Shown in pieces: positions 1-20,820 of a stretch of 64,000 nt of DNA (positions within the stretch are counted from its first letter, which is position 1; each line of letters opens with the position of its first letter). The notes under the pieces were generated by a model. The model was not told the origin of the DNA. It did no database searches and saw only the letters and a program-made list of their open reading frames with translations. Location of the stretch: NCBI GenBank assembly GCA_903845115.1, contig CAIMWE010000050.1:1-64000 (forward strand). The letters run 5' to 3'. Source of the DNA: an uncultured Acidobacteriota bacterium (GTDB lineage: Bacteria > Acidobacteriota > Thermoanaerobaculia > UBA5066). Position numbers and translations under genes: made by a program.

Positions 1-498
1 AGCCTCACCCTCGTCACAGCCTCTCGGAAGCGGGTTTCCCTTGGACCGGAGGTCCTCCGCACGACCCGCAGAGGACCGTGAACTGCGACCGCCGGAGTCT
101 AAGGCCGCGCACGGGGCGGGTCAAGGAAGTGAACAATCAGAGAGACGTGGCCGCAGTCCGGAACGAAAGGGGGAGGGCCGATCCATGACGCCGGGTTGCG
201 CCGGCAGGGTCCTCCGGGCCGCCGGCGGCGGCGTACTTCCCACGGTCACCCAACTCTTCAAGCAAGCCGTCCCATGACGATCGGCCCCTTCTGCCGCACT
301 CCCAAGCCTCGTGGTGCCAAGACGTTTTCATGCCAGCGTAACCCGTTGATCCTGGACTACTTCGCAATCCATACTGGAGAAGATCAGCTTCTCATTCCAG
401 GAAGGTCGGGACGACCTTGATAGGATCTCGCTCGAATTACGGCTCGACGAATTGCCGCTCGCGGAACAGGACGTGGTGAGTGTTACAGTGGAGATGGC
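1..498. other. no supported gene
   Basis: No frame here reads as a recognisable protein, and the short open frames overlap one another on both strands without a ribosome binding site. Composition becomes less GC-rich from about 280 onward, towards the YdjC-like gene. The stretch probably holds the upstream region of that gene, but I could not define a promoter with confidence. Confidence 0.5.
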
Positions 499-1248
499 AT
501 GAGAGTAATTATCAACGCTGATGATCTGGGCAAAAGCCGCATTGTGAATAGTGCGATCTTTGGGTTAATGGAAAAGGGCCGCGTGACTTCCTCCACTATG
601 CTGGCAAATGGACCGGCGTTTGAAGATGCAGCAATGCGCGCCAGGAATTTTCCTCAATGCTCGTTCGGCGTGCATCTCAACGCGTCAGAGTTCTTCCCCC
701 TGACAAGCGGGGCTGGCCTGCGACATATCCTCAACGAGGCTGGTGGCTTCGCCGGAAACCGCCTGCGCGAGATCAAAATCACGAGCGAATTACGGGAGGC
801 GCTTTTTCAAGAATGGAGCGCACAGGTAGAGCGTCTTCGAATGGCGGGATTCAGCGTGAGCCATTTCGACAGCCATCATCACATGCACACTGTTCTTGGC
901 GTCTTTCCGGTACTGAAGCGCTTGCAGCGAAAGTTCAGCATGAGAAGAGTGCGCATCACAATGAACATCTATCTCGAGCCCGCGCCAGCGCCGTTGCCGA
1001 GGAGGTTGGCAAAAGTGGCTTGGAATCTTGCCCTTCGGAACTACTTCCGGACGCGGACGACGGACGGATTCACCTCGCTGGAGACATTTGTGAAAGCGGC
1101 GGCAAGGATGAAACGGGATTCCCGTTCGGTTGAGCTGATGGTGCATCCAGGCGACGAAAGCTCATCGGCGGAGACAGAAATTCTCGCTGGAGAATGGTGG
1201 CGAGCTTTGCCAGTGGCACTCGAGCCAATCAGCTATGACGAACTTTGA
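499..1248 (+). CDS. YdjC/ChbG-family carbohydrate deacetylase
   Basis: Predicted metal-dependent deacetylase of the YdjC/ChbG family, which removes acetyl groups from N-acetylated sugars or diacetylchitobiose. The N-terminus INADDLG is the family's metal-binding Asp-Asp motif. GVHLNASEF at about residues 56-64 and FDSHHHMHT at about residues 123-131 supply further histidines. At 249 residues it is slightly short for the family but runs to a natural stop. The ATG at 499 follows a GGAG-like stretch. Codon use is clearly lower in GC than in most of the window, suggesting recent acquisition. It stands alone, so the true substrate is unknown. Confidence 0.85.
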   Translation: MRVIINADDLGKSRIVNSAIFGLMEKGRVTSSTMLANGPAFEDAAMRARNFPQCSFGVHLNASEFFPLTSGAGLRHILNEAGGFAGNRLREIKITSELREALFQEWSAQVERLRMAGFSVSHFDSHHHMHTVLGVFPVLKRLQRKFSMRRVRITMNIYLEPAPAPLPRRLAKVAWNLALRNYFRTRTTDGFTSLETFVKAAARMKRDSRSVELMVHPGDESSSAETEILAGEWWRALPVALEPISYDEL

Positions 1249-1426
1249 ACACGAAAGAGGCCGACTGTGGTAGGGACAAGCAACCATTCGAGCCAGAAAG
1301 AGGCCCTCGGGCTTCGGGCGTGCTCATGCGACTGGATTGGCCCATTGCATCAGTCCGAATCTCCGGAGATAGCTGCCCGGCAGGCTGTCGTGTTTTCAGC
1401 CCCCCCTCCTGAAGAATCACCCTTCC

Positions 1427-2074
1427 TTACGCCCGGTTTGGCTTGATCGCCTCTACATACAGACTCTGTGACTCGCGCTCCCGCAGGTCGAGCGCCCCTG
1501 GCTCTGGAATACCTGTCGTTCCCGGCTCCCGACGGACGGCGTCCGAGAAGCCATTCTTCTCAAGAAGCCCACACAAGGACCGGCAATCGTAGAGCCAATG
1601 ATACTGACGAGGACCTACGAGAGCGAGGCGAACGCGTTGCGAAAAGGTCCGTGGCTTCGGAACCGTCAAATAGGTAGAGGCTACGAAGGCATCTGCGTCT
1701 CCCGTTTGGGAATACGCGCTAACGAGTCGGTTCAGGTCTGGAACGGAGATCCGAAAAACACCGCCAGGACGAAGGACCCGATGTGCTTCTGCAAGGAAAG
1801 ACAGGACCTCCACCTGGTCCAGATACCCAATCATGTGGGAGGTGTAGAGAGCGTCCACCGAGGAGTCTGGACAAGGAAGGCGTCGAGCATCCGCCCACTC
1901 GACCTCGCCACGCCGGGCGAAGGCGATGAAAGCGACTTGTGGCGGCTCAAGAATGCCGAAACGTGCGGCAAGCGCGGTCAGCCGGGGCCAAGGGGCAAGA
2001 CGCAGAGCAAGAGAGTTGTCGAGATTCCTCCAACCCGGCGTCGGTGTTTGACCGCAACCAACGTTCAGTCGCAT
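1427..2074 (-). CDS. class I SAM-dependent methyltransferase
   Basis: Small SAM-dependent methyltransferase of 215 residues. LNVGCGQ near the N-terminus is motif I for AdoMet binding. WADARRLPCPDSSVDALYTSH gives the acidic loop and the post-motif region, and EAHRVLRPGGVFRISVPDL is the hallmark of Methyltransf_11-type enzymes. This subtype often lies in polysaccharide or surface-modification islands and may go with the neighbouring deacetylase, but nothing here fixes a substrate. The ATG at 2074 is preferred over the TTG one codon upstream. GC is lower than average, as in the gene before it. Confidence 0.8.
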   Translation of the reverse strand: MRLNVGCGQTPTPGWRNLDNSLALRLAPWPRLTALAARFGILEPPQVAFIAFARRGEVEWADARRLPCPDSSVDALYTSHMIGYLDQVEVLSFLAEAHRVLRPGGVFRISVPDLNRLVSAYSQTGDADAFVASTYLTVPKPRTFSQRVRLALVGPRQYHWLYDCRSLCGLLEKNGFSDAVRREPGTTGIPEPGALDLRERESQSLYVEAIKPNRA

Positions 2075-2124
2075 CAAGCCCCCTACGCGGAGTCTACCTG
2101 AGGAAGGATGATGAGTGGGGATGA

Positions 2125-2150
2125 GGGTCAGGACTCTACACTGTGATTTT
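2125..2150 (+). repeat. GGTCAGG-ACTGTG dispersed repeat, copy 1
   Basis: A 26-bp sequence beginning GGGTCAGGACTCTACACTG and ending GATTTT. It belongs to a dispersed family with related copies at 3715-3736, 4603-4629, 12897-12920 and an inverted pair at 20092-20193. It sits between the methyltransferase start and the 3' end of the next minus-strand gene. The shape and intergenic placement fit a REP-like element mobilised by a Y1/RAYT transposase, but no such transposase is in the window. Confidence 0.7.
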
Positions 2151-2331
2151 CGGCGACTCCGGGTCCGTGGAAACGTTCGGTTCTTCCTGGTGCTCCCTTA
2201 TCAATTCCGGCTGAACGGCCCAGGGTCTTCCGCTCAACGGAGTTCATACCATACCTTTTCCTCTCTCTTCATCGGCTCGGACTCTATCGCGCGGCCTCGG
2301 CCCGACCGTCCCCCGTGTCAACGGCTGGCCT

Positions 2332-3144
2332 TCAGCCTTTCCGGCTCCCGCCCTTCCCCTTCCGCGTGAAGTAGACGACGAGGACTGTCCCCGAGGCGAG
2401 GACGGCGAGGATGGTGATCGCCCTTTCCAGCAGGACGTTGGCGGGTTCCGGAATGACGCTGGAGGGAGGCCCGTAGAGGAATCCCGCCGCCGAAAGGAGG
2501 GCCACCACCGGGGCGAAACCGGCCAGGAGGAGAGGCCGTCCCAGGGACGACGCCCAGAGGACCGGCAGGAGGTAGAGGGCTCCCAGGTTCCAGTTCCTGG
2601 GGGTGAAGAGGTCCACCGCGAAGACGACGGCCAGGGTGACGAGAGAGAGCCCCAGGATGGCCCTCTTCATCGCCGTCAGGTCGTCCTCTCCGGCCGGGTC
2701 GAGGCGGCCGAGAGCCTTCTGCCGGTCCATCTCCGTGACGTCGTCGTGGACGCGGTGGAGGCGGGAGTGGATCGAGGTGACGAGGACGATCGCGACCGAG
2801 ATCATCAGCCGGTCGGCGATCCGGTAGGTGGCGAGCGACTCGGCCCCCCCGCCGGGAGCGAGCCCCTGCTCCAGGAGCCAGGCCCCGACGAGGAAGCAGG
2901 CGGCAGCGGCTGCCAGCGGCCAGGGAGCCCGGGGCCTCACGAGGACAAGGACCGCGAAAAAGGCCGGGAGGCAGAAGACCGAGAAGGACGGACCGGGCAG
3001 GAAGATGTCGGCCGCGGCGATGGAGAAGAACAGGGACCAGAGCAGGCCGGAACGGTGCACGGCCAGGAACGGCGATCCTCCCGCGCTCTCCCCGCGGGCT
3101 GGCAGGGCCGCGGATTCCGGTTCGGGGTCGATCGACGCGCTCAT
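2332..3144 (-). CDS. multi-pass membrane protein, possible sensor-only module
   Basis: Hypothetical integral membrane protein of 270 residues with roughly seven or eight hydrophobic segments and a short soluble linker at about residues 135-160. The C-terminal half, with VDLFTPRNWNLGALYLLPVLWAS, resembles membrane sensing modules found N-terminal to bacterial histidine kinases and GGDEF proteins. No kinase or other output domain follows: the protein ends after a basic tail. The ATG at 3144 is preferred over an adjacent TTG. It may be an orphan sensor or a simple membrane protein. Function unknown. Confidence 0.6.
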   Translation of the reverse strand: MSASIDPEPESAALPARGESAGGSPFLAVHRSGLLWSLFFSIAAADIFLPGPSFSVFCLPAFFAVLVLVRPRAPWPLAAAAACFLVGAWLLEQGLAPGGGAESLATYRIADRLMISVAIVLVTSIHSRLHRVHDDVTEMDRQKALGRLDPAGEDDLTAMKRAILGLSLVTLAVVFAVDLFTPRNWNLGALYLLPVLWASSLGRPLLLAGFAPVVALLSAAGFLYGPPSSVIPEPANVLLERAITILAVLASGTVLVVYFTRKGKGGSRKG

Positions 3145-4602: not shown

Positions 4603-4629
4603 AAAACCACAGTCTAGAGACCTGACCCC
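4603..4629 (-). repeat. GGTCAGG-ACTGTG dispersed repeat, copy upstream of vor operon
   Basis: On the minus strand this reads GGGGTCAGGTCTCTAGACTG then TGGTTTT, a near-perfect member of the dispersed family. It lies 40 bases upstream of the ferredoxin oxidoreductase start, in the short divergent intergenic region, so it may have brought or displaced promoter sequence. Confidence 0.75.
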
Positions 4630-10771: not shown

Positions 10772-12319
10772 TCAGCGCCTCGAGCTGGCCCGGGTCCTCC
10801 CTGCCTCGCGGTCCAGGACGGCGAGGGCCTGGGCGTAGAGCTCCTCCACCTCGTCGCGGCTGTTGCCGATCGCCGTCAGCCCCAGCTTCCCGAACTGCGA
10901 GAGCGCCCCGACCATGTGGAAGAGGACGCCGGTCTCGGGACCCGGGCTGTAGTGGAGGCGGTTGGCGGTCGTGATCTCGATGAGGTCCTCGGGGAGGAGC
11001 CCCCGCAGGCGCCGGGAGTGGAGGTTGTCGGTGGCCCGGTAGTACTTGGCGTGGCCGGTGGGGGCGGCGAAGAGTCCGGTCGACGGGTCGAGGGCCCCCC
11101 CGGTCAGGAACTGGAGGGCGAGGAAGGGGTGGGTCGTCCCCCCCTTTCTGAGGTTGATCTCGATCGCCTGGACGTCCCAGCCGCCCGGCGCGGACGGCAT
11201 GCGGCGGGCGATGAAGTCGACGCCGAAGCGTCCGATGACGCCCAGCTCGGCGAGGACCTCCCCGACGCGCTTCCCGGCGTCCTGGATGGCCCCCCGGTAC
11301 GCCTCGTCGGCGGGGAAACGGCAACCGAGGAAGATCTGCGATCCCGGCCCGCCCAGGATCTGGTCGTGGGTGGAGACGAGCTGGCAGTTCCCCTCGGGGT
11401 CGATCTGGAGCTGGGCGGAGGGGGAGCGCTTCGAGTCTCCCTCTAGGAACTCCTCGACGACCGCGCCCATCTCCCCCATCTGCGCCATGAAGGTCTCGTA
11501 GGTCTCGCTGCTGCTGATGAACTCGAGGTCCGGCAGCTCCCCGAGAATCGCCGAGATGCTCTCCCCTTCCGGATAGTGGAACAGGGCGTTCCCCTCGCCG
11601 GAGAAGCTGTCGTCGAGCTTGACGACGGCTCGGACGAGCCCGGGGCGCCCCTTCCGGAGAAGGAAGAGGGCCTCGGCCAGCTCGCGCTCCGTTTTCAGGT
11701 TCTCGAAGCCGGCGGGGTGAGGGACGCCAGCCAGGCGGAAGGCCTTCCGGCTCCCCGACTTCGTCCCGTAGACGGCGAGCGCTGGGTCGACCCCCAGGAG
11801 CGGGATCCCCAGCTGGAGCGCCAGGCGCCGCTCGAGCGGCGTCGAGTTGAAGACCGTCAGAAACGCGACCGGCGCGTCGGCGAGGGCGTCCCTGATCCGC
11901 TCCACGAGCCGGGGCCGCTCGAGGATCTTCTCCGTGAGCGGGCGCGGGGAGGAGTCGTGGGCGCACAGCAGCGTCAGGCGCGAGCGGGCGTGGCTGGCCG
12001 GGATCCCCGCGAGGAGCTGGAAGTAGTACTCCAGGATCAGCGGGTGGACCGGCTGCGAGGTGACGTAGACGAGCCTCGCCCGCGGGTTCCGGAGCCGGAT
12101 GAGGAAAAAGAGGAGCCTCTCCTCGTAGAAGCTGATCCCGTCGATCTTGGCCAGCTCCCGCTGGTCGAGGGAGAACGACGGCACGACGACCGAGGTGTGC
12201 TTCTGGTCGGCCGCTCCCTCCACGGTCTTCCAGACCTGGAGCAGCCGCGGTTTCAGCCGCTCGAACTCCCCGAGCTCGCTCTCCAGGCCGGCCGTCCCCG
12301 GGGGGGAATCGAACGCCAT
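10772..12319 (-). CDS. PGM1-like ATP-grasp peptide/carboxylate-amine ligase
   Basis: A 515-residue protein with a pre-ATP-grasp N-terminal domain, a central ATP-grasp fold and a C-terminal segment LGLTAIGNSRDEVEELYAQA resembling the PGM1 C-terminal domain. PGM1 is the pheganomycin ligase that joins a nonproteinogenic amino acid to a peptide. ATP-grasp features include KTERELAEALFLL, AVVKLDDSFSGEGNALF and GRFGVDFIARR followed by AIEINLRKGGTTHPF, the metal-binding Glu-Ile-Asn. The divergent neighbour is ogt and no precursor peptide or tailoring enzyme is adjacent, so the substrate is unknown. It could make a small peptide or modify an amino acid. Confidence 0.75.
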   Translation of the reverse strand: MAFDSPPGTAGLESELGEFERLKPRLLQVWKTVEGAADQKHTSVVVPSFSLDQRELAKIDGISFYEERLLFFLIRLRNPRARLVYVTSQPVHPLILEYYFQLLAGIPASHARSRLTLLCAHDSSPRPLTEKILERPRLVERIRDALADAPVAFLTVFNSTPLERRLALQLGIPLLGVDPALAVYGTKSGSRKAFRLAGVPHPAGFENLKTERELAEALFLLRKGRPGLVRAVVKLDDSFSGEGNALFHYPEGESISAILGELPDLEFISSSETYETFMAQMGEMGAVVEEFLEGDSKRSPSAQLQIDPEGNCQLVSTHDQILGGPGSQIFLGCRFPADEAYRGAIQDAGKRVGEVLAELGVIGRFGVDFIARRMPSAPGGWDVQAIEINLRKGGTTHPFLALQFLTGGALDPSTGLFAAPTGHAKYYRATDNLHSRRLRGLLPEDLIEITTANRLHYSPGPETGVLFHMVGALSQFGKLGLTAIGNSRDEVEELYAQALAVLDREAGRTRASSRR

Positions 12320-12368
12320 TGCACGGAGATTCTAGAGGACGGATGATGTTCAGCAGGGAGACACCGCC

Positions 12369-12881
12369 ATGCCACTCCTCGTCGCCACTCTTCAAACGCC
12401 GATCGGACCCCTCGAGGTCGTGACAAAGGGAGGGGTGTTGTGCGGGATCACCTTCGAGGGCCGCGGCGCCTCGACCCGCGCCTGGATGGAGAAGCGGTTC
12501 GGCGAGATCGGCATCGAGGTGCACGATTCACTCGGAGAGGTGACCGAACGGATCGCCGCTTATTTCGCCGGCGACGTCAGGGCGATCGACGCGCTCCCCG
12601 TCGATACCGGCGGGACGACCTTCCAGTGCCGCGTCTGGGAGGCGCTGCGGAAGATCCAGCCCGGGACGACCGCCACGTACGGCGACGTGGCGAAGATGAT
12701 CTGGCGAGAGAAGTCCGCGCGTCCGGTGGGGATGGCGACCGGCCGGAACCCGATCCCGATCGTGATCCCGTGTCACCGCGTCGTCGCGGCCGACGGGACG
12801 CTCGGGGGATACAGCGGGGGAATCGAGCGCAAGAAGTGGCTCCTCTCGCACGAGCAGGGCCAGGGCGAGCTGGGTGGCTAG
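12369..12881 (+). CDS. ogt: methylated-DNA--protein-cysteine methyltransferase
   Basis: Suicide DNA-repair protein that transfers the alkyl group from O6-alkylguanine to its own cysteine. The active-site motif IPCHRVV places the acceptor cysteine at residue 135. FQCRVWEALRKIQPGTTATYGDVA is the DNA-binding wing and helix region, followed by RPVGMATGRNPIPI. At 170 residues it is the usual length for Ogt without an Ada domain. AGGGAG lies 14 bases upstream of the ATG. It is divergent from the ATP-grasp ligase across a 49-base gap. Confidence 0.93.
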   Translation: MPLLVATLQTPIGPLEVVTKGGVLCGITFEGRGASTRAWMEKRFGEIGIEVHDSLGEVTERIAAYFAGDVRAIDALPVDTGGTTFQCRVWEALRKIQPGTTATYGDVAKMIWREKSARPVGMATGRNPIPIVIPCHRVVAADGTLGGYSGGIERKKWLLSHEQGQGELGG

Positions 12882-12896
12882 GCGGGCAGCCCCCCG

Positions 12897-12920
12897 AAAC
12901 AACAGTCTAGAGACCTGACC
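12897..12920 (-). repeat. GGTCAGG-ACTGTG dispersed repeat, copy upstream of polyamine operon
   Basis: On the minus strand this reads GGTCAGGTCTCTAGACTGTT then GTTT. It lies between ogt and the first gene of the polyamine operon, 32 bases before the GTG start, so it probably overlaps the promoter or leader of that operon. Confidence 0.75.
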
Positions 12921-12951
12921 GCACGGTGGACGCTAGAATGCTGGCCCAACC

Positions 12952-14949
12952 GTGAGTTCCCGCGTCGCAAGCTGCCCTTCGTGCGGAGGCGAGGTCTCGT
13001 TTCGCGCGGGCTCGAGCCTGGTGTCGGTCTGCCCGCACTGCCGCGCGGCGGTCGCGCGCAAGGGGGTCGACCTGGAGGCGATCGGGCAGGTGGCCGAGCT
13101 GGTCGCCACCTCGTCGCCGTTCAAGCTGGGCCTCGCGGCGAAGCCGAAGAAGGGGATCCGGCCGTTCACGTTCGTCGGGCGACTCCAGCTCTCGACGGGC
13201 GAGGGGACGTGGGACGAGTGGCACCTCGCCTTCGCCGACGGCTCGCACGGCTGGCTGGCGGAGGCGCAGGGGGAGTTCTTCCTGATGCTCCCCGTGAAGC
13301 CGCCGGAGGTCCCCGAGTTCGCGCAGATCCAGCCGGCCATGCGCCTCGACCTGGGGGCGTACGGCGTCTTCGTGGTGGTGGACCGGCGGCAGGCGCTCTA
13401 CGCCTCGGCCGAGGGGGAGCTGCCGTTCCGCTCTCCGCCGGGGTCGGTCTTCATGTACGCCGACCTCTCCGGCGCGGACGGGAGCCTGGCGACGCTCGAC
13501 TACGGCGACGACCCTGGCCTCGACGCCTTCTACGTCGGGCGGAAGGTCGACCTCGAGAATCTGAACGTCGAGGGGGCAATCGGCTGGGACCAGCGAACGA
13601 CGGCCGCGAAGAGCGCCTCGCTGAACTGCCCGAGCTGCGGCGGCTCGCTGACGCTGAAGGACCCGGCCGGGACGAAGTCGATCGCCTGCACGTACTGCGG
13701 GTCGATCCTCTGGTCCAAGGAGAGCGGGCCGAACGCCGGAAAGTTCGGGGTCCTGGAGAAGCTGGCGGAGCCCCCCTTCGTGCCCGACGTCCCGCTCGGG
13801 TCGGCAGGAGACCTCGAGGGGAGGAAGGTGGTCGTCCTCGGGGCGCTCCGGAAGGCGTGCCAGGTGGACGAGACCTGGTACTACTGGAAGGAGTACCTCC
13901 TCAAGGAAGGGGCGACGGAGGCGTACCTCTGGCTGGTCGAGTCGAACGGGCACTGGTCGTTCGTCGTGCCGGTGGCCGCCGGCACGGTCTCCGCCGCCGG
14001 CAACGCCGTGGTGTACGGCGGGAAGAAGTACAAGCACTTCCAGAAGGCCGAGGCGGTCGTCGAGGCGGTCCTCGGAGAGTTCTACTGGCAGGTCCGGAGG
14101 GGCGAGACGACCACCGCCTCCGACTACGTCGCCCCGCCGCGGATCCTCTCCGAGGAGATCAGCGGAAACGAGGCGACCTGGTCCGAGGGGACGTACCTCC
14201 AGAAGGAGGCCGTCGAGCAGGCGTTCGCCATCCAGACGCCGCTCCCTTCGCCCGAAGGGGTCGGTGCGAACCAGCCGTGGCCGCGGGCCGAGGAGGCGAA
14301 GGGCGTCCGGCGGATCGCCGGGATCATGGCGCTGGTGACGACCCTCCTCTTTGTCGGCTTCACCGTCGCCTTCCCGCGGTCGATCGTCTTCGACAGGGAC
14401 CTGTCCCTCGTGGACAGCCCGAACTCTTCGCCGTCGGCGTGGAGCACGGGCGCCGACGCGAAGACCGACAAGGCGGAGGACCGGATCTTCCTCAGCGAGC
14501 CGTTCGAGATCCCGCGCAGCGGGAACGTCGAGGCGCACCTCGACGCGCCGACCGACAACACGTGGGTGGCCGTCGGGGTCGACCTGATCGAGGAGACGAC
14601 CGGGGAGAGCCACTCGTTCGGGCTCGTCTCGGACTACTACCACGGCGTGGACGACGGGGAGAGCTGGAGCGAGGGAGCCCGCCACCGGAACGTCTACCTC
14701 TCGCGGGTCCCGAAGGGGAGATACGTCCTGCGGCTGGAGCCGGAGTTCGAGCAGGGGAAGGCCCCGCCTGGGTACCACGTGACCCTCCGGAGCGGCGTGA
14801 CCCACTTCGGCCGGTTCGTCCTGGTCCTCTTCCTCCTGACGCTGGGACCCCTGGCGATGGGCCTCTCGTACGTCCGGTTCGAGAGCCGCCGGTGGGCGGA
14901 GAGCGACTACGAGAGCAGCTCGTCGGAATCGTCGGGGAGCGATGAATGA
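12952..14949 (+). CDS. DUF4178 protein with two zinc ribbons and C-terminal membrane anchors
   Basis: A 665-residue protein with duplicated architecture. Each half has a zinc ribbon (CPSCGGEVSFRAG...CPHC near residue 8; CPSCGGSLTLKD...CTYC near residue 224) followed by a DUF4178 domain (FVGRLQLSTGEGTWDEWHLAF in the first). Two membrane helices follow near residues 450-475 and 622-645, and the protein ends in a Ser/Asp/Glu-rich tail. DUF4178 proteins (E. coli YjfK-like) recur beside DUF350 and polyamine-synthesis genes, as here. The biochemical role is not established. GTG start; no strong ribosome binding site. First gene of an eight-gene operon. Confidence 0.8.
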   Translation: MSSRVASCPSCGGEVSFRAGSSLVSVCPHCRAAVARKGVDLEAIGQVAELVATSSPFKLGLAAKPKKGIRPFTFVGRLQLSTGEGTWDEWHLAFADGSHGWLAEAQGEFFLMLPVKPPEVPEFAQIQPAMRLDLGAYGVFVVVDRRQALYASAEGELPFRSPPGSVFMYADLSGADGSLATLDYGDDPGLDAFYVGRKVDLENLNVEGAIGWDQRTTAAKSASLNCPSCGGSLTLKDPAGTKSIACTYCGSILWSKESGPNAGKFGVLEKLAEPPFVPDVPLGSAGDLEGRKVVVLGALRKACQVDETWYYWKEYLLKEGATEAYLWLVESNGHWSFVVPVAAGTVSAAGNAVVYGGKKYKHFQKAEAVVEAVLGEFYWQVRRGETTTASDYVAPPRILSEEISGNEATWSEGTYLQKEAVEQAFAIQTPLPSPEGVGANQPWPRAEEAKGVRRIAGIMALVTTLLFVGFTVAFPRSIVFDRDLSLVDSPNSSPSAWSTGADAKTDKAEDRIFLSEPFEIPRSGNVEAHLDAPTDNTWVAVGVDLIEETTGESHSFGLVSDYYHGVDDGESWSEGARHRNVYLSRVPKGRYVLRLEPEFEQGKAPPGYHVTLRSGVTHFGRFVLVLFLLTLGPLAMGLSYVRFESRRWAESDYESSSSESSGSDE

Positions 14950-14997
14950 AGATCCACGGACCGGGGCCGCGAGAGGCGGAAGGACGGTGAGGCCAGG

Positions 14998-15165
14998 ATG
15001 AAACGCGTCTACATGATCCTCGGGTCGGCCCTGATCGCGGTGTGGGCCTGGTCCGAGTGGACCGGCTGGGAGCTGGCCCCCGACACGAAGAGAGGGGTGG
15101 TCCCGGCCTCGGCCCGGAACACGGGCGGCTTCCGCAGCTATCACTTCTGGTCAGGAGGCAAATGA
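14998..15165 (+). CDS. small membrane-anchored protein in the DUF4178/DUF350 operon
   Basis: A 55-residue protein with one hydrophobic N-terminal segment (MKRVYMILGSALIAVWAW) followed by a short polar tail rich in Arg, Gly and Ser, ending FWSGGK. Its stop overlaps the DUF350 start (ATGA), and AGG lies just upstream of its own ATG, so it looks like a real cotranslated gene. The hydrophobic segment could be a signal anchor. I recognise no family; the E. coli yjf cluster also contains a small envelope protein at a similar place. Confidence 0.6.
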   Translation: MKRVYMILGSALIAVWAWSEWTGWELAPDTKRGVVPASARNTGGFRSYHFWSGGK

Positions 15166-15392
15166 TGGACTGGTGGCACCTTCACGGAAACCAGGTGATC
15201 TCGACCCTGGTCTTCTCGGCGATCGGGATGGGGACCTTCGCGCTCTTCTTCCTGGTCCTCCCGCACATCCTCCCGTTCTCGCTGAAGAAGGAGATGGAGG
15301 AGGACCAGAACACGGCCCTCGGGATCGTGCTAGGGGCGATCGTCATCGGGATCGCCCTGATCATCTCGGCCGCGATCAGCGGCGGCGGTTGA
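15162..15392 (+). CDS. DUF350 membrane protein (YjfL-like)
   Basis: A 76-residue inner-membrane protein of the DUF350 family with two membrane helices: ISTLVFSAIGMGTFALFFLVL at about residues 14-34 and TALGIVLGAIVIGIALIISA at about residues 51-70. They are separated by the charged loop KKEMEEDQN. DUF350 proteins usually have one or two such hairpins, and this is the single-hairpin form. The start overlaps the stop of the small gene before it. DUF350 beside DUF4178 and a spermidine-synthase homologue is a known recurrent neighbourhood, though its mechanism is not known. Confidence 0.8.
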   Translation: MMDWWHLHGNQVISTLVFSAIGMGTFALFFLVLPHILPFSLKKEMEEDQNTALGIVLGAIVIGIALIISAAISGGG

Positions 15393-15399
15393 TCCCCAC

Positions 15400-16983
15400 G
15401 TGACCCGGCCTGGGGCCGATCCGGCCGGCGCCGGCGCTACCGGCGGGGTCCCCGCCCCGGCGGCCGCCCCGGGCCGTGACGGCGCGATCCGGCCGGGCCC
15501 CGTCTACCTGACGGTCCTCGTCATCGCCACCTGCGGGCTCGTCTACGAGCTGGTGGCGGGGACCCTCGCGAGCTACCTCCTCGGCGACTCGGTGACGCAG
15601 TTCTCCCTGGTGATCGGCGTCTACCTCACCTCCATGGGCCTCGGCGCCTGGCTGACCAGGTTCCTCGAGCGGGGCCTAGCGCAGCGGTTCGTGGACGCGG
15701 AGATCGCCGTCGCCTTCGTCGGCGGCCTCTCCGCCCCGATCCTCTACTTCTCGTTCTCGTCCCCCCGCTTCTTCCAGCCGGTCTTCTTCTCGGTGGTGGT
15801 CCTGATCGGCGTCCTCGTGGGCCTGGAGATCCCCCTGATGCTCCGGCTCCTCCGGACCTCGGTCGCCTTCAAGGACCTGGTCTCTCAGGTCCTGACGTTC
15901 GACTACCTCGGCGCGCTCGTGGCGTCGGTCCTCTTCCCCCTCGTGTTCGTCCCCCGGCTGGGCCTCGTCAGGACGAGCGTCCTCTTCGGCCTCCTGAACG
16001 CCGCGGTCGCGTTCGCGTCGATCCACATCTTCCGCGACCGGATCGGCTCCCCGCGGCGCCTCGTCCTGAAGGCGGCCGCGGTGACGGTCCTCCTCCTGGC
16101 GGCATTCGTGATGGCCGACCGGCTCACCAACCTGGCCGAGGAGACGCAGTACGCGGACGAGGTGCTGCTGGCCAGGACGACGCCCTACCAGCGGATCGTC
16201 CTGACTCGAAACCGAGCCGGCTTCCAGCTCTTCCTGAACGGGCACCTCCAGTTCTCCTCGGTCGACGAGTACCGGTACCACGAGGCGCTGGTCCACCCGG
16301 CCTTCGCGGTGAACCCCGGCGCGAAGCGGGTCGCGGTCCTGGGCGGGGGCGACGGGCTGGCCGTCCGCGAGATCCTGCGCCACCCCGGGGTGGAATCGGT
16401 GACGCTGGTCGACCTCGACCCGGCGATGACCGACCTCGCCCGGAACCACCCGCTCTTCCGGAAGCTGAACGGGGAGTCGCTCTCGTCGTCGAAGGTGACG
16501 GTCGTGAACGAGGACGCGATGGTCTGGCTGCCGAAGGGGACCGACCTCTTCGACCTCGTCTTCGTCGACTTCCCCGACCCGAACAGCTTCGCGGTGGGCA
16601 AGCTCTACACGGCGAGGTTCTACTCGATGCTGAAGGCGCGGCTCGACCCCGACGGGGCGATCGCGGTCCAGTCGACCTCCCCGCTCTTCGCCCGCCACTC
16701 CTTCTGGATCGTGGAGCGGACGATCGCCGCCGCGGGCTACGTGACCCGGCCGTACCACGCGGCGGTCCCGTCGTTCGGCGAGTGGGGGTACGTCCTGGCC
16801 GCGAGAAAGCCGTTCGACGTCCCGGCCAGAGTTCCCCCGGGGCTCCGCTTCCTGTCGGAGGCGAACCTCCCCGGGCTCTTCGCCTTCGGCCCCGACATGG
16901 CCCGGCTCGAGGTCCCCGTGAACCGGCTGAACACGCAGGTTCTGGTCCGGACGTACGAGCGGGAGTGGAAGAAGTTCGAGTAG
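15400..16983 (+). CDS. membrane-fused polyamine aminopropyltransferase (spermidine synthase family)
   Basis: A 527-residue protein. Residues 30-245 form about six to seven membrane helices (LVIATCGLVYELVAGTLASY onward), and the C-terminal half is a spermidine-synthase domain. The AdoMet/decarboxylated-AdoMet motif VLGGGDGLAVREI lies near residue 314, followed by VTLVDLDPAMTDLAR and FVDFPDPN. The protein would transfer aminopropyl groups from decarboxylated AdoMet to an amine at the membrane. Membrane-fused SpeE homologues are known, but their acceptors are mostly unidentified. Starts with GTG seven bases after the DUF350 stop. The speD in the same operon would supply its donor. Confidence 0.85.
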   Translation: MTRPGADPAGAGATGGVPAPAAAPGRDGAIRPGPVYLTVLVIATCGLVYELVAGTLASYLLGDSVTQFSLVIGVYLTSMGLGAWLTRFLERGLAQRFVDAEIAVAFVGGLSAPILYFSFSSPRFFQPVFFSVVVLIGVLVGLEIPLMLRLLRTSVAFKDLVSQVLTFDYLGALVASVLFPLVFVPRLGLVRTSVLFGLLNAAVAFASIHIFRDRIGSPRRLVLKAAAVTVLLLAAFVMADRLTNLAEETQYADEVLLARTTPYQRIVLTRNRAGFQLFLNGHLQFSSVDEYRYHEALVHPAFAVNPGAKRVAVLGGGDGLAVREILRHPGVESVTLVDLDPAMTDLARNHPLFRKLNGESLSSSKVTVVNEDAMVWLPKGTDLFDLVFVDFPDPNSFAVGKLYTARFYSMLKARLDPDGAIAVQSTSPLFARHSFWIVERTIAAAGYVTRPYHAAVPSFGEWGYVLAARKPFDVPARVPPGLRFLSEANLPGLFAFGPDMARLEVPVNRLNTQVLVRTYEREWKKFE

Positions 16984-16988
16984 ACCGG

Positions 16989-18668
16989 ATGCACCGGGGC
17001 TCCGTTCCTCCCTCCCGACGGGACGTCATCGCCGCCCTGGCCGGGCTCCCCGCCCTGTCGGCCTTCCTGGAGGCGTGCGGCCCCCGGGGGGCGAAGGTCC
17101 CGCGCTACGACGGCGGGATCGTGGGCGGCTCGGCGGCGCTGGGCCACCGCCTCTTCGCCGGGGACCTCCACCTCCGCCCAGTGGCGCGGACGGAGCGGAC
17201 CGGCACGGCGATCCTGGGCAGCGGGATCTCGGGCCTCTCGGCCGCGTGGACCCTCGCCCGCGCCGGGTACTCCGGCTTCCAGATCTACGAGGCCGAGCCC
17301 GAGATCGGGGGCAATGCCCGCTCCGGAAGGAACGCCGTCTCGAAGTACCCGTGGGCGGCCCACTACGTCCCGGTCCCGGCCGGCGAGAACCGGGCGCTGG
17401 AGGCGCTGCTGGAGGAGGCCGGGGCGATCGCCGAGCGCGGGAACGACGGGCGTCCGGTGTGGGACGAGGCGGCCCTGATCCGCGAGCCGGAGGAACGGCT
17501 CTACTTCCACGGGCAGTGGGTGGAGGGACTCTACCCGCGGCTCGGCGCGACGAGGGAGGACCTCTCGCAGTTCGCGGGGTTCGAGCGGGCGATGCGCGCC
17601 TTCTCCGCCGCGCGCGACGGGAAGGGGCGGCGCGCGTTCGCCCTCCCCCGCCGCCTCTCGTCGCCCGACGCGGAGTTCGCGGCGCTGGACCGCCTCTCGA
17701 TGGCGGAGTGGCTGGCGAGGAACGGCTACGCCTCCCGCCGGCTTCTCTGGTTCGTGGAGTACGGCTGCCGCGACGACTTCGGCTCGAGCCTGGCCGAGAC
17801 CTCGGCGTGGGCCGGCATCCACTACTTCGCGGCGCGACTGGAGGGGACCTCGCTGGAGGACGACCCGGCGCCGTTCCTCACCTGGCCCGAGGGGAACGGG
17901 CGGCTCGTGACGGTCCTCGCGAGATCGGCCGCGGGGAGGATCCGGACGGGCGCGCTCGTCTTCGACGTCACGCCCTCCCGGTCCGGCGTCGTCCTGAAAC
18001 TCTTCGACCCGGCCAGGGACGAGGTCGTCCAGGTCGAGGCTGCCCACGCCGTCTGCGCCCTGCCCCACTTCGCCGCCCGGTACGCGGTGGCTCCCCTCAG
18101 AGAGCGGCTCCGGGAGCGGGGGCGCGAGCACGCCGCGGTCTTCGACTACGCGCCGTGGCTCGTGGCCAACGTCACTCTCCGGGAGCGGCCCGAGCCGCAC
18201 GGCTTCCCGATGGCCTGGGACAACGTCCTCTACGCGTCGAAGTCGCTCGGGTACGTCGTGGCCACCCACCAGGCGGGGAGCGACCACGGCCCCACCGTGC
18301 TCACCTGGTACCACGCGTTCGCCGGCGAGGCGACGCTCCCGGCCCGGCAGAAGCTCCTCTCCGCCAGCTGGGAGGACCTGGCGGCGACGGTGGTGGCCGA
18401 CCTCTCGCTGGCGCACCGGGACATCGCGGGGAAGATCGAGCGGGTGGACCTCTACCGCTGGGGGCACGCCATGGCGCGGCCCTCGCCGGGGACCCTCTTC
18501 AACCCGGACCGGCGGCAGGCGGCCGAGCCGATCGGGCGCCTCCGGTTCGCGCACGCCGACCTCTCGGGCCTGCCGCTCTTCGAGGAGGCCAACGACGCCG
18601 GGGTCCGCGCCGCCGAGTCGATCCTGTCGGAGGAGAGGCTCCCCTTTTCAAGACTGGCCACTCCGTGA
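16989..18668 (+). CDS. Tat-exported, lipoprotein-like flavin amine oxidase
   Basis: A 559-residue FAD-dependent oxidoreductase of the amine-oxidase/phytoene-desaturase fold. The N-terminus has a twin-arginine motif (SRRDVIAALAGLPALSAFLE) running into ACG, a possible lipobox, so the enzyme is probably folded before export and anchored outside the inner membrane. The Rossmann motif AILGSGISGLSAAW lies near residue 75, followed by YEAEPEIGGNARSG. Later residues HAMARPSPG and ANDAGVRAAESIL form the C-terminal FAD-binding part. Its place between an aminopropyltransferase and AdoMet decarboxylase suggests it oxidises a polyamine or a polyamine-modified product in the periplasm. Confidence 0.8.
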   Translation: MHRGSVPPSRRDVIAALAGLPALSAFLEACGPRGAKVPRYDGGIVGGSAALGHRLFAGDLHLRPVARTERTGTAILGSGISGLSAAWTLARAGYSGFQIYEAEPEIGGNARSGRNAVSKYPWAAHYVPVPAGENRALEALLEEAGAIAERGNDGRPVWDEAALIREPEERLYFHGQWVEGLYPRLGATREDLSQFAGFERAMRAFSAARDGKGRRAFALPRRLSSPDAEFAALDRLSMAEWLARNGYASRRLLWFVEYGCRDDFGSSLAETSAWAGIHYFAARLEGTSLEDDPAPFLTWPEGNGRLVTVLARSAAGRIRTGALVFDVTPSRSGVVLKLFDPARDEVVQVEAAHAVCALPHFAARYAVAPLRERLRERGREHAAVFDYAPWLVANVTLRERPEPHGFPMAWDNVLYASKSLGYVVATHQAGSDHGPTVLTWYHAFAGEATLPARQKLLSASWEDLAATVVADLSLAHRDIAGKIERVDLYRWGHAMARPSPGTLFNPDRRQAAEPIGRLRFAHADLSGLPLFEEANDAGVRAAESILSEERLPFSRLATP

Positions 18669-19573
18669 GAAAACGCGGCATGCCGTCCACCCTGGTCCGG
18701 ACCCTCATCGGGTGCACCGCGTTCACGATCTTCATCACGAACACCGTCGTCTGGTGCACGGTGCTCTTCGTCGTCCGTCTGGCCAAGGCGCTGATCCCGC
18801 TCCCGGCCTGGAAGCGCTTCACGACGAAGGTCCTGATGGGGATCGGGTCGATCTGGATCGACACGAATTCCTGGGGGCTCCGCGTGACGCAGAAGCACCG
18901 CTGGGACGTCCAGGGGCTGGAGGGGCTGACCGAGGGGGGCTGGTACCTCGTCAGCTCCAATCACCGGTCGATGGTCGACATCGTCGTCCTCCAGCGGGTC
19001 TTCAACCACAGGATCCCGTTCCTGAAGTTCTTCCTCAAGTCGCAGCTGATCTGGGTCCCGTTCCTCGGACAGGCGTGGTGGTCCCTCGACTTCCCCTTCA
19101 TGCGCCGGTACTCGAAGGAGGAGATCGCGAGGCATCCCGAGCTGCGCGGGAGGGACCTGGAGACGACGCGGAAGGCGTGCGAGAAGTTTCGGCTGGCGCC
19201 GATGTCGATCATCAACTTCCTCGAGGGGACGCGGTTCATCCAGGAAAAGCACGACCGGCAGAAGTCCCCCTACCGGAACCTGCTGCTGCCGAAGGCGGGC
19301 GGGATCGCGTTCGTCCTCTCCGCGCTCGGCGACCGCCTGACCTCCTTCGTCGACGTGACGATCGCTTACCCGGACGGGACGCCCGGCTTCTGGGACGTCC
19401 TCTCGCGCCGCCTCGACCGGATCGTCGTCCGCGTGAAGAGCGTTCCGATCCCGCCGGACCTGATCGGGGGCGACTACTCCGGGGACGCGGCCTACCGGGA
19501 GCGGGTCCAGACGTGGGTGCGCGAGATGTGGGACCGGAAGGACGCCGAGATCGACCAGCTCCTCGCGCCGTGA
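18665..19573 (+). CDS. PlsC/YihG-like membrane acyltransferase
   Basis: A 302-residue 1-acylglycerol-3-phosphate acyltransferase-family protein. After an N-terminal membrane helix it has NHRSMVD (the NHx4D catalytic motif, near residue 100), FPFMRRYSKEE and FLEGTR, the three acyltransferase blocks. YihG-like members acylate lysophospholipids or other membrane acceptors. The GTG at 18665 overlaps the stop of the amine oxidase (GTGA); the ATG at 18680 is an alternative. A lipid acyltransferase inside a polyamine operon suggests that the product is a lipid-linked or membrane-associated amine. Confidence 0.85.
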   Translation: MRKRGMPSTLVRTLIGCTAFTIFITNTVVWCTVLFVVRLAKALIPLPAWKRFTTKVLMGIGSIWIDTNSWGLRVTQKHRWDVQGLEGLTEGGWYLVSSNHRSMVDIVVLQRVFNHRIPFLKFFLKSQLIWVPFLGQAWWSLDFPFMRRYSKEEIARHPELRGRDLETTRKACEKFRLAPMSIINFLEGTRFIQEKHDRQKSPYRNLLLPKAGGIAFVLSALGDRLTSFVDVTIAYPDGTPGFWDVLSRRLDRIVVRVKSVPIPPDLIGGDYSGDAAYRERVQTWVREMWDRKDAEIDQLLAP

Positions 19574-19583
19574 GCGGGGCTTC

Positions 19584-19727
19584 GTGAGCGCCGCCGCCCC
19601 CTCCGCCTGGCTCGTCTCGCTCCTTGCCCTCCCCCAGGCAACCCGCTATCTTCTGGACGCTTGGATCTGGAGAATGAAGCCGCAGAACGAGGAGACCGCC
19701 CGGGCCCTCGGACTCGCCGCCAGATGA
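19584..19727 (+). CDS. possible small protein between plsC and speD
   Basis: A 47-codon open frame with a GTG start, a hydrophobic N-terminus (PSAWLVSLLALPQATRYLL) and a charged C-terminus ending ARALGLAAR. Its stop overlaps the speD start (ATGA), continuing the overlap style of the operon. No recognisable domain and no strong ribosome binding site; it could be a short membrane-associated subunit or only a leader for translational coupling of speD. Confidence 0.45.
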   Translation: MSAAAPSAWLVSLLALPQATRYLLDAWIWRMKPQNEETARALGLAAR

Positions 19728-20086
19728 CACACCGACGACCTCCCCTCGGCCGCCACTTCCTCCTCGACATCGCGGGGGCGCCCTTCGACCTCCTGGACGA
19801 TCCGATCGAGATCGAGGAGGCCCTCGTGGCCACCGTGAAGACCATGAGAGCGAAGATCCTCGGGATCCACGTCCACCGCCTCGCGCCGCAGGGGATCAGC
19901 GGCGTGGTCGTCATCTCCGAGTCGCACCTGACGATCCACACCTGGCCAGAGCTGGGCGAGGCGGCCGTGGACCTCTTCACCTGCGGCGACGAGGCCGCGG
20001 CGAAGGAGGCCGTCACGGCCCTCGGCCCCCGCCTCCGGGCCGGCCGGACCGACATCCGCGAGGTCCTCCGCGGCGTGAGGGACTGA
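19724..20086 (+). CDS. speD: S-adenosylmethionine decarboxylase proenzyme
   Basis: Prokaryotic AdoMet decarboxylase of 120 residues, which makes decarboxylated AdoMet, the aminopropyl donor for spermidine-type synthesis. ISESHLTIHTWPE contains the self-cleavage site: cleavage between Glu66 and Ser67 would generate the pyruvoyl group. AAVDLFTCG carries the catalytic cysteine. Length and motifs match the class I prokaryotic enzyme. It closes the operon and directly supplies the membrane aminopropyltransferase at 15400-16983. Confidence 0.93.
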   Translation: MTHRRPPLGRHFLLDIAGAPFDLLDDPIEIEEALVATVKTMRAKILGIHVHRLAPQGISGVVVISESHLTIHTWPELGEAAVDLFTCGDEAAAKEAVTALGPRLRAGRTDIREVLRGVRD

Positions 20087-20091
20087 GGTCA

Positions 20092-20193
20092 GGGTCAGGT
20101 CTCTATACTGTGGTTTTCAGCCTCGGCCCTGATGACTCGACCACGCCCCTGCAACGCGAACTGCCAAAATATCACAGTGTAGAGACCTGACCC
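20092..20193. repeat. REPIN-like inverted pair of the dispersed repeat
   Basis: Two oppositely oriented copies of the dispersed element flank a 48-base centre. The left copy, 20092-20117, begins GGGTCAGGTCTCTATACTG; the right copy, 20166-20193, reads on the plus strand CACAGTGTAGAGACCTGACC. The arrangement matches a REPIN, i.e. two REP sequences in inverted orientation that can fold as a long hairpin and move as a unit. It lies just after speD and before the ECF sigma gene, so it could also act as a transcription-attenuating hairpin. Confidence 0.75.
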
Positions 20194-20235
20194 CCTTTCT
20201 GACCGGACCGGACGGCTCGCGCGTCTTTCTCTACG

Positions 20236-20820
20236 ATGGAGGCAGTGATCGACGGCTCGCCGCTCCCCATGGCCGGAGAGGAGATCTCGTGGGGAGAGTC
20301 CCTCCAGGCACCGTTCGACGAGCTCGCTGCCGGGAATGTCGCCGCTCTCGAGGAGGTCTGGGAGATCGCGGGACGGCGCCTCTACGCGATCGCGCTATGG
20401 CGGACCGGGAATGAGGCCGACGCGCGGGACGTGGTCCAGGAGGTCTTCGTCAAGCTGGCGTCCGGCCGCCACGCCTTGAAGGGGGTCTCCTCCCCCGGTC
20501 TCTGGCTCCTGACGGTGGCCCACCGGGCGGCGATCGACCTGACCCGGCGGCGGGCCGTCCGCGCCGCCGAACCGCTCGGCGATACACAGTTCGTGGCCGG
20601 ACCCGGAAGCGATCCCCACCGCGCGGCCGAGGCCGCCTGGCTCTCCGACGCCCTCCTCGGCCTTCCCGCGCCCCAGCGCGAGGCGGTCTCCCTCCGTCAC
20701 CTCGCCGGTCACTCGTTCCGCGAGATCGCGGCGATCACCGGCGTCCCGACCTTCACGGCGGCGAGCCGGTGCCGACTCGGCCTCGCACGTCTTCGAAAGC
20801 TCCTGGAGCGCCCCCGATGA
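20236..20820 (+). CDS. ECF-type RNA polymerase sigma factor
   Basis: A 194-residue sigma-70-family factor of the extracytoplasmic-function type. ADARDVVQEVFVKLASG near residue 58-74 is the core-binding region 2.2, with the DNA-melting segment following. LPAPQREAVSLRHLAGHSFREIAAITG is the sigma-4 helix-turn-helix. It precedes a probable membrane anti-sigma partner by an ATGA overlap, the usual arrangement for a signal-responsive ECF factor. It probably controls its own operon, including the exported 375-residue protein. Confidence 0.85.
   Translation: MEAVIDGSPLPMAGEEISWGESLQAPFDELAAGNVAALEEVWEIAGRRLYAIALWRTGNEADARDVVQEVFVKLASGRHALKGVSSPGLWLLTVAHRAAIDLTRRRAVRAAEPLGDTQFVAGPGSDPHRAAEAAWLSDALLGLPAPQREAVSLRHLAGHSFREIAAITGVPTFTAASRCRLGLARLRKLLERPR

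What the first reader, a model, noticed from the sequence alone, without database searches (positions are those of the whole stretch)
12952..20086. Eight-gene polyamine and cell-envelope operon with export of the oxidase
The order DUF4178 with zinc ribbons, small membrane protein, DUF350, membrane-fused aminopropyltransferase, Tat/lipobox flavin amine oxidase, PlsC acyltransferase, small protein, AdoMet decarboxylase is seen directly, with stop-start overlaps or short gaps throughout. DUF350/DUF4178 with spermidine-synthase homologues is a known recurrent neighbourhood, but the addition of a predicted periplasmic amine oxidase and a lipid acyltransferase, plus a private SpeD, suggests that a polyamine is made at the membrane, attached to or inserted in the envelope, and turned over outside. 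The mechanism is inference.
Basis: partly seen in the sequence, partly recalled or inferred. Interest (0 to 1): 0.8.

Follow-up and report, generated by a model that had tools for sequence, protein, structure and literature searches.

The report
Membrane aminopropyl-transfer operon with swapped gene
This is an Acidobacteriota version of an already noticed but unexplained bacterial operon that seems to attach the aminopropyl building block of polyamines to something at the cell membrane; an exported flavoenzyme turns out to be a regular partner, whereas the lipid acyltransferase is a local newcomer that has overwritten most of a conserved membrane-protein gene.

Summary
The eight ORFs exist in the stated order with overlaps or short gaps. 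Family identities hold: DUF4178 with zinc ribbons, a one-helix microprotein, half-length DUF350, membrane-fused aminopropyltransferase (PRK03612), Tat/lipobox flavin oxidoreductase, YihG-type PlsC and class-1b AdoMet decarboxylase. Two points change the picture. (1) The oxidase is a core partner: near the aminopropyltransferase in 40 of 52 well-flanked loci from several phyla, with a twin-arginine motif in 39 of 40 homologues and a lipobox Cys in 34. It has the MAO/putrescine-oxidase fold but no conserved lysine, so 'amine oxidase' is unproven. (2) The acyltransferase is not part of the system: it was beside these genes in no other locus. The 'small protein' after it is the decayed tail of a conserved ~350-aa polytopic membrane protein that relatives carry between oxidase and SpeD. 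The genome has one SpeD and no recognisable putrescine route, so the likely product is an aminopropylated membrane-bound acceptor rather than spermidine. SpeD/fusion/DUF350/DUF4178 neighbourhoods, and a band-7 variant with 'polyamine oxidase', are already published; the exported nature of the oxidase, the His-rich membrane partner and the plsC replacement are what I add. Substrates remain inference.

The parts
12952..14949 (+). g1: DUF4178 protein (665 aa), two CxxC zinc ribbons (residues ~8-35 and ~225-251), two hydrophobic segments at 452-470 and 616-634
   Evidence: Pfam DUF4178 E=2e-27, zinc-ribbon families sub-threshold; hydropathy; homologue within 7 kb in 42 of 52 well-flanked aminopropyltransferase loci
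14998..15165 (+). g2: conserved microprotein (55 aa) with one N-terminal hydrophobic stretch and C-terminal motif GG(F/Y)RSYHFWSGGK
   Evidence: no Pfam/NCBIfam family; same ORF and motif at the same place in other Acidobacteriota and a few Myxococcota/Planctomycetota loci
15162..15392 (+). g3: DUF350/YjfL membrane protein, half-length (76 aa, 2 TM); the only DUF350 found in the genome
   Evidence: PF03994 E=5.7e-13 over profile 4-67 of 133; genome search; 38 of 52 loci
15400..16983 (+). g4: aminopropyltransferase with N-terminal polytopic membrane domain (527 aa); Asp390 and Asp393 (catalytic), Asp340, Asp372 and GGGDG invariant
   Evidence: NF002956 652 bits; alignment A3 of 27; alignment to solved aminopropyltransferases
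16989..18668 (+). g5: Tat- and lipobox-bearing FAD oxidoreductase of MAO/putrescine-oxidase fold (559 aa), no conserved Lys
   Evidence: PF01593 E=4e-13; R10 40/40, R11 39/40, C30 34/40, no conserved Lys; AF2 pLDDT 89.9; Foldseek E 4.7e-24 to monoamine oxidase 8p84
18665..19573 (+). g6: PlsC/YihG-type 1-acylglycerol-3-phosphate acyltransferase; local newcomer, not part of the conserved module
   Evidence: NF058536 407 bits; HRSMVD and EGTR motifs in the translation; absent from all other aminopropyltransferase loci; family orthologues lie elsewhere
19584..19727 (+). g7: 47-aa remnant of the C-terminus of a conserved ~350-aa polytopic membrane protein ('gm'); conserved THY has become TRY
   Evidence: 56% identity over 36 aa to the gm tail and no other match in the genome; profile 37 bits against 200-560 for relatives; tail alignment and GC3 0.81 against 0.88-0.97 for the other operon genes
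19724..20086 (+). g8: class-1b S-adenosylmethionine decarboxylase (SpeD), the only one found in the genome
   Evidence: TIGR03330 116 bits; near-identical active-site stretch to T. maritima AdoMetDC; single genome hit

Best explanation
The operon is a member of the published AdoMet decarboxylase / membrane-fused aminopropyltransferase / DUF350 / DUF4178 module. SpeD makes decarboxylated AdoMet in the cytosol. The membrane-anchored aminopropyltransferase moves its aminopropyl group onto a membrane-embedded or lipid-like amine acceptor rather than free putrescine (inferred). DUF350, DUF4178 and the g2 microprotein form the membrane scaffold or stress-sensing part (inferred from published context). 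The product is presented on the outer face, where the Tat-exported, usually lipid-anchored flavoenzyme oxidises it or a co-substrate (export strongly supported by sequence; reaction inferred). A conserved His/Asp/Glu-rich polytopic membrane protein (gm) normally works next to the flavoenzyme and SpeD, probably as a metal-dependent membrane enzyme (inferred). In this lineage the gm gene was overwritten by a plsC/yihG acyltransferase gene, leaving a decayed 47-aa tail overlapping the start of speD, so the acyltransferase is either a replacement enzyme or a passenger.
For: Module conserved across phyla: of 52 aminopropyltransferase loci with enough flank, DUF4178 in 42, oxidase in 40 (33 oxidase matches within 113 bp downstream, measured between profile-match edges), DUF350 in 38, SpeD in 32, gm in 26, PlsC in 0. 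Reciprocal test: Acidobacteriota loci fetched with the oxidase as bait show the aminopropyltransferase beside it, apart from three distant homologues at 31-33% identity. Export signal conserved. Catalytic aspartates invariant. AdoMetDC active site intact. No ornithine/lysine/arginine decarboxylase of the OKR type, no arginase/agmatinase, and both Orn_Arg_deC_N hits score as LysA. In four family members the order is oxidase-gm-SpeD with nothing between (L114, L115, L171, L173). PSP-type context: a band-7 gene (SHOCT-bearing in L100) upstream in Planctomycetota, Chlorobi and Proteobacteria loci, matching the operon variant in PMC11237479, which also cites possible aminopropylation of other substrates.
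Against: No biochemical datum for any protein here. Absence of a putrescine route rests on a 96%-complete draft genome and a few families; pyruvoyl-type arginine decarboxylase and uptake were not searched. The acceptor is unknown: a lipid, a small molecule or a protein are all open. The flavoenzyme need not act on the aminopropyl product. The gm active site is inferred from conserved residues only, and Foldseek found no solved relative.
Confidence: 0.5

Rival explanations
1. Soluble-polyamine version: g4 makes spermidine or another free polyamine, the membrane domain exports it, and the periplasmic oxidase degrades it, as in surface polyamine protection in Pseudomonas aeruginosa.
For: Catalytic and donor-site residues of g4 align with true aminopropyltransferases; fold of g5 is closest to monoamine/putrescine oxidase, with spermidine dehydrogenase SpdH also among the top hits; P. 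aeruginosa has a linked SpeD2/SpeE2 pair tied to surface polyamines in the literature (cited in PMC11107197).
Against: No recognisable putrescine synthesis in the genome; from my own knowledge of Li et al. 2019 (Biochem J 476:2579; full text not read here), MFS-SpdSyn fusions did not complement a spermidine-synthase mutant and spermidine was absent from such species; no conserved Lys in g5.
Confidence: 0.2
2. The exported flavoenzyme is not an amine oxidase at all but a desaturase, dehydrogenase or isomerase acting on the lipid part of the product (like protoporphyrinogen oxidase or the fatty-acid isomerase PAI), in a pathway for a modified membrane lipid.
For: Best sequence match in the PDB is 2b9w, deposited as 'putative aminooxidase' and from my own knowledge a fatty-acid double-bond isomerase; the substrate half alone matches protoporphyrinogen oxidase and 2b9w best, weakly; NCBIfam top hit is the FAD domain of hydroxysqualene dehydroxylase HpnE; no Lys conserved.
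Against: Foldseek ranks MAO and putrescine oxidase first, though protoporphyrinogen oxidase scores almost as well; sequence matches in the substrate half are near the noise.
Confidence: 0.2
3. The acyltransferase functionally replaces gm: it acylates the same lipid intermediate, making a rewired lipid pathway in this lineage.
For: plsC sits exactly in place of the gm body with a 4-bp overlap to the oxidase and is the only copy found in the genome.
Against: A single genome; the genus-mate G199 (77% complete) shows no trace of the arrangement; relatives keep both gm and plsC at separate places; a general LPAAT gene moved by chance explains it equally.
Confidence: 0.1

Closest known systems
AdoMetDC / MFS-spermidine synthase fusion / DUF350 cluster (Li et al. 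2019, Biochem J 476:2579; cited in PMC11237479)
   Same: class-1b SpeD, aminopropyltransferase fused to an N-terminal membrane domain, DUF350 in one cluster; genome without recognisable putrescine synthesis
   Different: here the oxidase, DUF4178, g2 and gm remnant are in the same operon, and plsC is present; details of Li et al. are from memory, the paper was not in the library
PSP-linked operon with 7TM-spermidine synthase, YjfL/DUF350, DUF4178 and CesT/Tir-PspA, and the band-7/SHOCT variant with AdoMet decarboxylase and polyamine oxidase (PMC11237479)
   Same: same enzyme families; relatives in Planctomycetota and Proteobacteria carry the band-7 gene beside the module
   Different: no PspA, CesT/Tir or band-7 gene in the window's operon; DUF350 is a single 2-TM unit; plsC and gm are not described in the text I read
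Pseudomonas aeruginosa SpeD2-SpeE2 (PA4773-PA4774)
   Same: dedicated class-1b SpeD next to an aminopropyltransferase, linked in the literature to envelope-associated polyamine (PMC11107197)
   Different: SpeE2 (349 aa) is assigned there as a thermospermine synthase and is too short for the membrane fusion
Flavin polyamine/putrescine oxidases and SpdH
   Same: overall fold and FAD domain
   Different: no conserved lysine; Tat plus lipobox; weak match in the substrate domain
E. coli YihG (PlsC-type LPAAT)
   Same: equivalog-level profile score
   Different: genomic place: set into this operon

Membership tests
Membrane aminopropyl-transfer module (SpeD / 7TM-APT / DUF350 / DUF4178) | aminopropyltransferase domain fused to N-terminal polytopic domain | tested here: met
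   NF002956 652 bits, residues 35-525; hydropathy finds six hydrophobic stretches in residues 33-243, long enough for about seven helices
Membrane aminopropyl-transfer module (SpeD / 7TM-APT / DUF350 / DUF4178) | DUF350 partner | tested here: met
   PF03994 E=5.7e-13, half-length
Membrane aminopropyl-transfer module (SpeD / 7TM-APT / DUF350 / DUF4178) | DUF4178 partner | tested here: met
   PF13785 E=2e-27
Membrane aminopropyl-transfer module (SpeD / 7TM-APT / DUF350 / DUF4178) | SpeD encoded in the cluster | tested here: met
   TIGR03330 116 bits
PSP-linked form of the module | PspA, CesT/Tir or band-7 gene in the operon | tested here: not met
   none of the eight operon genes is one; the two upstream neighbours are MGMT and an ATP-grasp ligase; band-7 present in 19 relatives' loci
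PSP-linked form of the module | Ctha_1186 lipoprotein | not tested
   no model of this domain turned up in the libraries searched
Flavin polyamine oxidase | FAD-binding domain and MAO-like fold | tested here: met
Flavin polyamine oxidase | conserved Lys near flavin N5, usual in MAO/PAO/LAAO/LSD1 (own knowledge) | tested here: not met
   no alignment column has Lys in more than 12 of 40 sequences; the exact structural position was not checked, as no coordinates were available
Flavin polyamine oxidase | amine-oxidising activity | not testable with these tools
   needs enzyme assay
AdoMet decarboxylase (class 1b) | processing Ser, His and Cys as in T. maritima (S63, H68, C83; PMC10407285) | tested here: met
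   stretch SGVVVISESHLTIHTWPE...LFTCG aligns with 1vr7/1tlu
Spermidine synthase | catalytic Asp residues and dcAdoMet site | tested here: met
   D390, D393, D340, D372, GGGDG invariant in 27 homologues
Spermidine synthase | putrescine available as acceptor | tested here: inconclusive
   no OKR_DC, no arginase/agmatinase, only LysA-type decarboxylases in a 96%-complete draft; uptake and pyruvoyl ADC not searched
YihG LPAAT | HX4D and EGTR motifs, equivalog score | tested here: met
   HRSMVD and EGTR in the translation; 407 bits, cut-off 260

The most novel reading that the evidence does not exclude
The conserved set SpeD, membrane aminopropyltransferase, Tat-lipoprotein flavoenzyme and the unclassified His-rich membrane protein gm form a complete trans-membrane pathway for an aminopropyl-modified envelope lipid, started inside and finished outside, with gm a new class of intramembrane metalloenzyme; in this lineage an LPAAT has taken over gm's step.
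Probability: 0.2. Interest if true: 0.8.

Novelty: new variant of a known kind. Interest (0 to 1): 0.48.

Why it matters
Many bacteria carry an AdoMet decarboxylase and a membrane-fused aminopropyltransferase without an evident polyamine product, and what they aminopropylate is an open question. The comparative evidence here adds two recurrent partners with a location (an exported flavoenzyme lipoprotein and a His-rich membrane protein), which narrows the search to the envelope and to products that can be seen by lipid mass spectrometry in deletion strains of culturable hosts such as Mucilaginibacter or Myxococcus species. It also shows that the acyltransferase should not be used as evidence for the general function.

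Tried and rejected
PlsC as a conserved partner: rejected. g7 as an independent small protein: rejected, it is a remnant. g8 as a neofunctionalised ornithine/arginine decarboxylase (PMC10407285): considered; the active-site stretch matches T. maritima AdoMetDC nearly letter for letter, so unlikely. Naming gm: no Pfam or NCBIfam model, no PDB sequence relative, no PDB fold match at E<=0.001 despite pLDDT 89.6. Lys position of g5 by alignment to solved amine oxidases: alignments too weak in that half. Rfam elements in 12000-20600: none. Promoter/terminator scan: nothing above chance. Aminopropyltransferase loci without any partner (several Myxococcota and one Planctomycetota, e.g. L049, L055, L056, L064, L065) were looked at briefly and not resolved. 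Papers naming the aminopropylated product were searched for and not found. One literature search was wasted on a wrong date bound.
Full report
WHAT IS THERE. The window is contig C50 of a 5.85-Mb draft genome (305 contigs, 96% complete) whose closest named relatives are uncultured Acidobacteriota, several labelled Thermoanaerobaculia or Holophagales. The eight ORFs were rebuilt and lie on one strand with 4-bp overlaps (g2/g3, g5/g6, g7/g8) and gaps of 48, 7, 5 and 10 bp. Profile searches confirm DUF4178, DUF350, a PRK03612-type membrane-fused aminopropyltransferase, a flavin amine-oxidoreductase, a YihG-type PlsC and a class-1b AdoMet decarboxylase.

CONSERVATION TEST. A scan of named genomes with g4 as bait gave 80 loci, and a scan of 199 genomes of the phylum with g5 as bait gave matches in 38 genomes. 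I built iterative profiles for each gene from these loci and mapped gene order. Among 52 g4 loci with at least 3 kb upstream and 3.5 kb downstream, a neighbour was found within 7 kb as follows: DUF4178 42, oxidase 40, DUF350 38, SpeD 32, the membrane protein gm 26, g2 12, PlsC 0. The oxidase is usually directly downstream of g4 on the same strand (33 matches within 113 bp between profile edges). The loci come from Acidobacteriota, Myxococcota, Planctomycetota, Bacteroidota, Chlorobi and Proteobacteria; several are close relatives, so the counts are not independent observations. From the oxidase side, the fetched Acidobacteriota loci have g4 beside it, except three homologues at 31-33% identity (L124, L125, L128). 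So the oxidase is a core partner and the acyltransferase is not.

THE 'SMALL PROTEIN' AND THE ACYLTRANSFERASE. The g7 profile hit longer ORFs (mostly 350-400 aa, stop to stop) in about 40 loci, nearly always at their C-terminal end. These ORFs form one family, here called gm, located after the oxidase. In the same taxonomic family the order oxidase-gm-SpeD is directly seen in L114, L115, L171 and L173, and gm and SpeD stay together even where they have left the rest of the operon (L161, L163, L165). The source genome has no gm except the tail at 19608-19715, 56% identical over 36 aa. In that tail the THY motif, present in all 27 relatives whose tail was printed, reads TRY, a conserved Pro is Ser, and GC3 is 0.81 against 0.88-0.97 in the other operon genes. 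Family-level homologues of the window's plsC exist at about 70-74% DNA identity but on other contigs or far from the oxidase. The simplest reading is a rearrangement that put plsC in place of most of gm. A chimeric assembly is not excluded, but would need two exact junctions, one with a 4-bp start/stop overlap.

THE FLAVOENZYME. In 40 aligned homologues the first arginine of the pair is invariant, the second is kept in 39, and a lipobox-position cysteine is present in 34. This makes export by Tat, and lipid anchoring in most, well supported by sequence. The predicted structure (pLDDT 89.9) matches monoamine oxidase and putrescine oxidase best (E about 1e-23), with protoporphyrinogen oxidase and spermidine dehydrogenase close behind. 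No lysine is conserved anywhere in the family, whereas the known flavin amine oxidases use one near the flavin (own knowledge). The substrate half alone matches protoporphyrinogen oxidase and a fatty-acid isomerase best, weakly. The name 'amine oxidase' therefore describes the fold, not a shown activity.

THE AMINOPROPYL BRANCH. g4 keeps the donor-site GGGDG, Asp340 and Asp372 and the two catalytic aspartates 390 and 393 in all 27 aligned homologues, so it should be active. g8 matches T. maritima AdoMet decarboxylase through the processing region. The genome has one SpeD, one DUF350, g4 plus one divergent 774-aa spermidine-synthase-like membrane protein, two LysA-type decarboxylases and nothing else from PF02784, no OKR decarboxylase and no arginase/agmatinase. 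With Li et al. 2019, quoted here partly from memory, this points to an acceptor other than putrescine made by the cell.

GM. Thirty homologues share invariant or near-invariant D57, H60, H115, R118, Q119, Q120, H157, D234, N241, H245, E295, E296, D300 and H337 (L039 numbering). The model is all-helical and confident (pLDDT 89.6, pTM 0.87) with no PDB fold match and no Pfam or NCBIfam model. Several of these residues fall inside predicted helices, which suggests, but does not show, an intramembrane metal site.

CONTEXT AND PRIOR KNOWLEDGE. [quoted passage not shown] Nineteen loci here carry a band-7 gene, mostly upstream of the module. The neighbourhood, including an oxidase, is thus known; the window is a member without the band-7 or PspA gene. 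What I did not find described in what I read is the conserved Tat/lipobox nature of the oxidase, the gm family, and the plsC-for-gm exchange.

SHOWN AND INFERRED. Shown by computation: gene identities, order, conservation, export signals, catalytic-residue conservation, the gm remnant and the absence of plsC beside the module elsewhere. Inferred: co-transcription, membrane-bound acceptor, outer-face oxidation, metal site in gm, and any role of plsC.

Noticed in passing
12908-12920 (+), 20093-20105 (-), 20180-20192 (+), 4615-4627 (+), 2126-2138 (-): Dispersed repeat TAGAGACCTGACC: 5 copies (<=1 mismatch) in the window against 0.08 expected, 16 exact copies in the genome and none for the reversed control; copies bracket the operon, and the pair after SpeD is inverted. 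Resembles REP/RAYT-type elements (own knowledge).
   Followed up: partly
10772-12319 (-): ATP-grasp ligase with PGM1_C domain, related to BesA-type amino-acid/peptide ligases, divergent from the MGMT gene and the operon.
   Followed up: no
L144 (own genome C98), 442-2766 (-): 774-aa membrane protein with a divergent spermidine-synthase-like domain, below the PRK03612 cut-off.
   Followed up: no
L080, L092, L094 (Polyangiaceae/Labilithrix): Two divergent copies of parts of the module on opposite strands, one with a low-scoring aminopropyltransferase.
   Followed up: no
L161, L163, L164: gm and SpeD lie apart from the rest of the module in several members of the same family; in L164 the two are about 3 kb from each other.
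   Followed up: partly
L049, L055, L056, L064, L065: Aminopropyltransferase genes about 55-59% identical to g4 with none of the usual partners nearby, mostly Myxococcota.
   Followed up: partly
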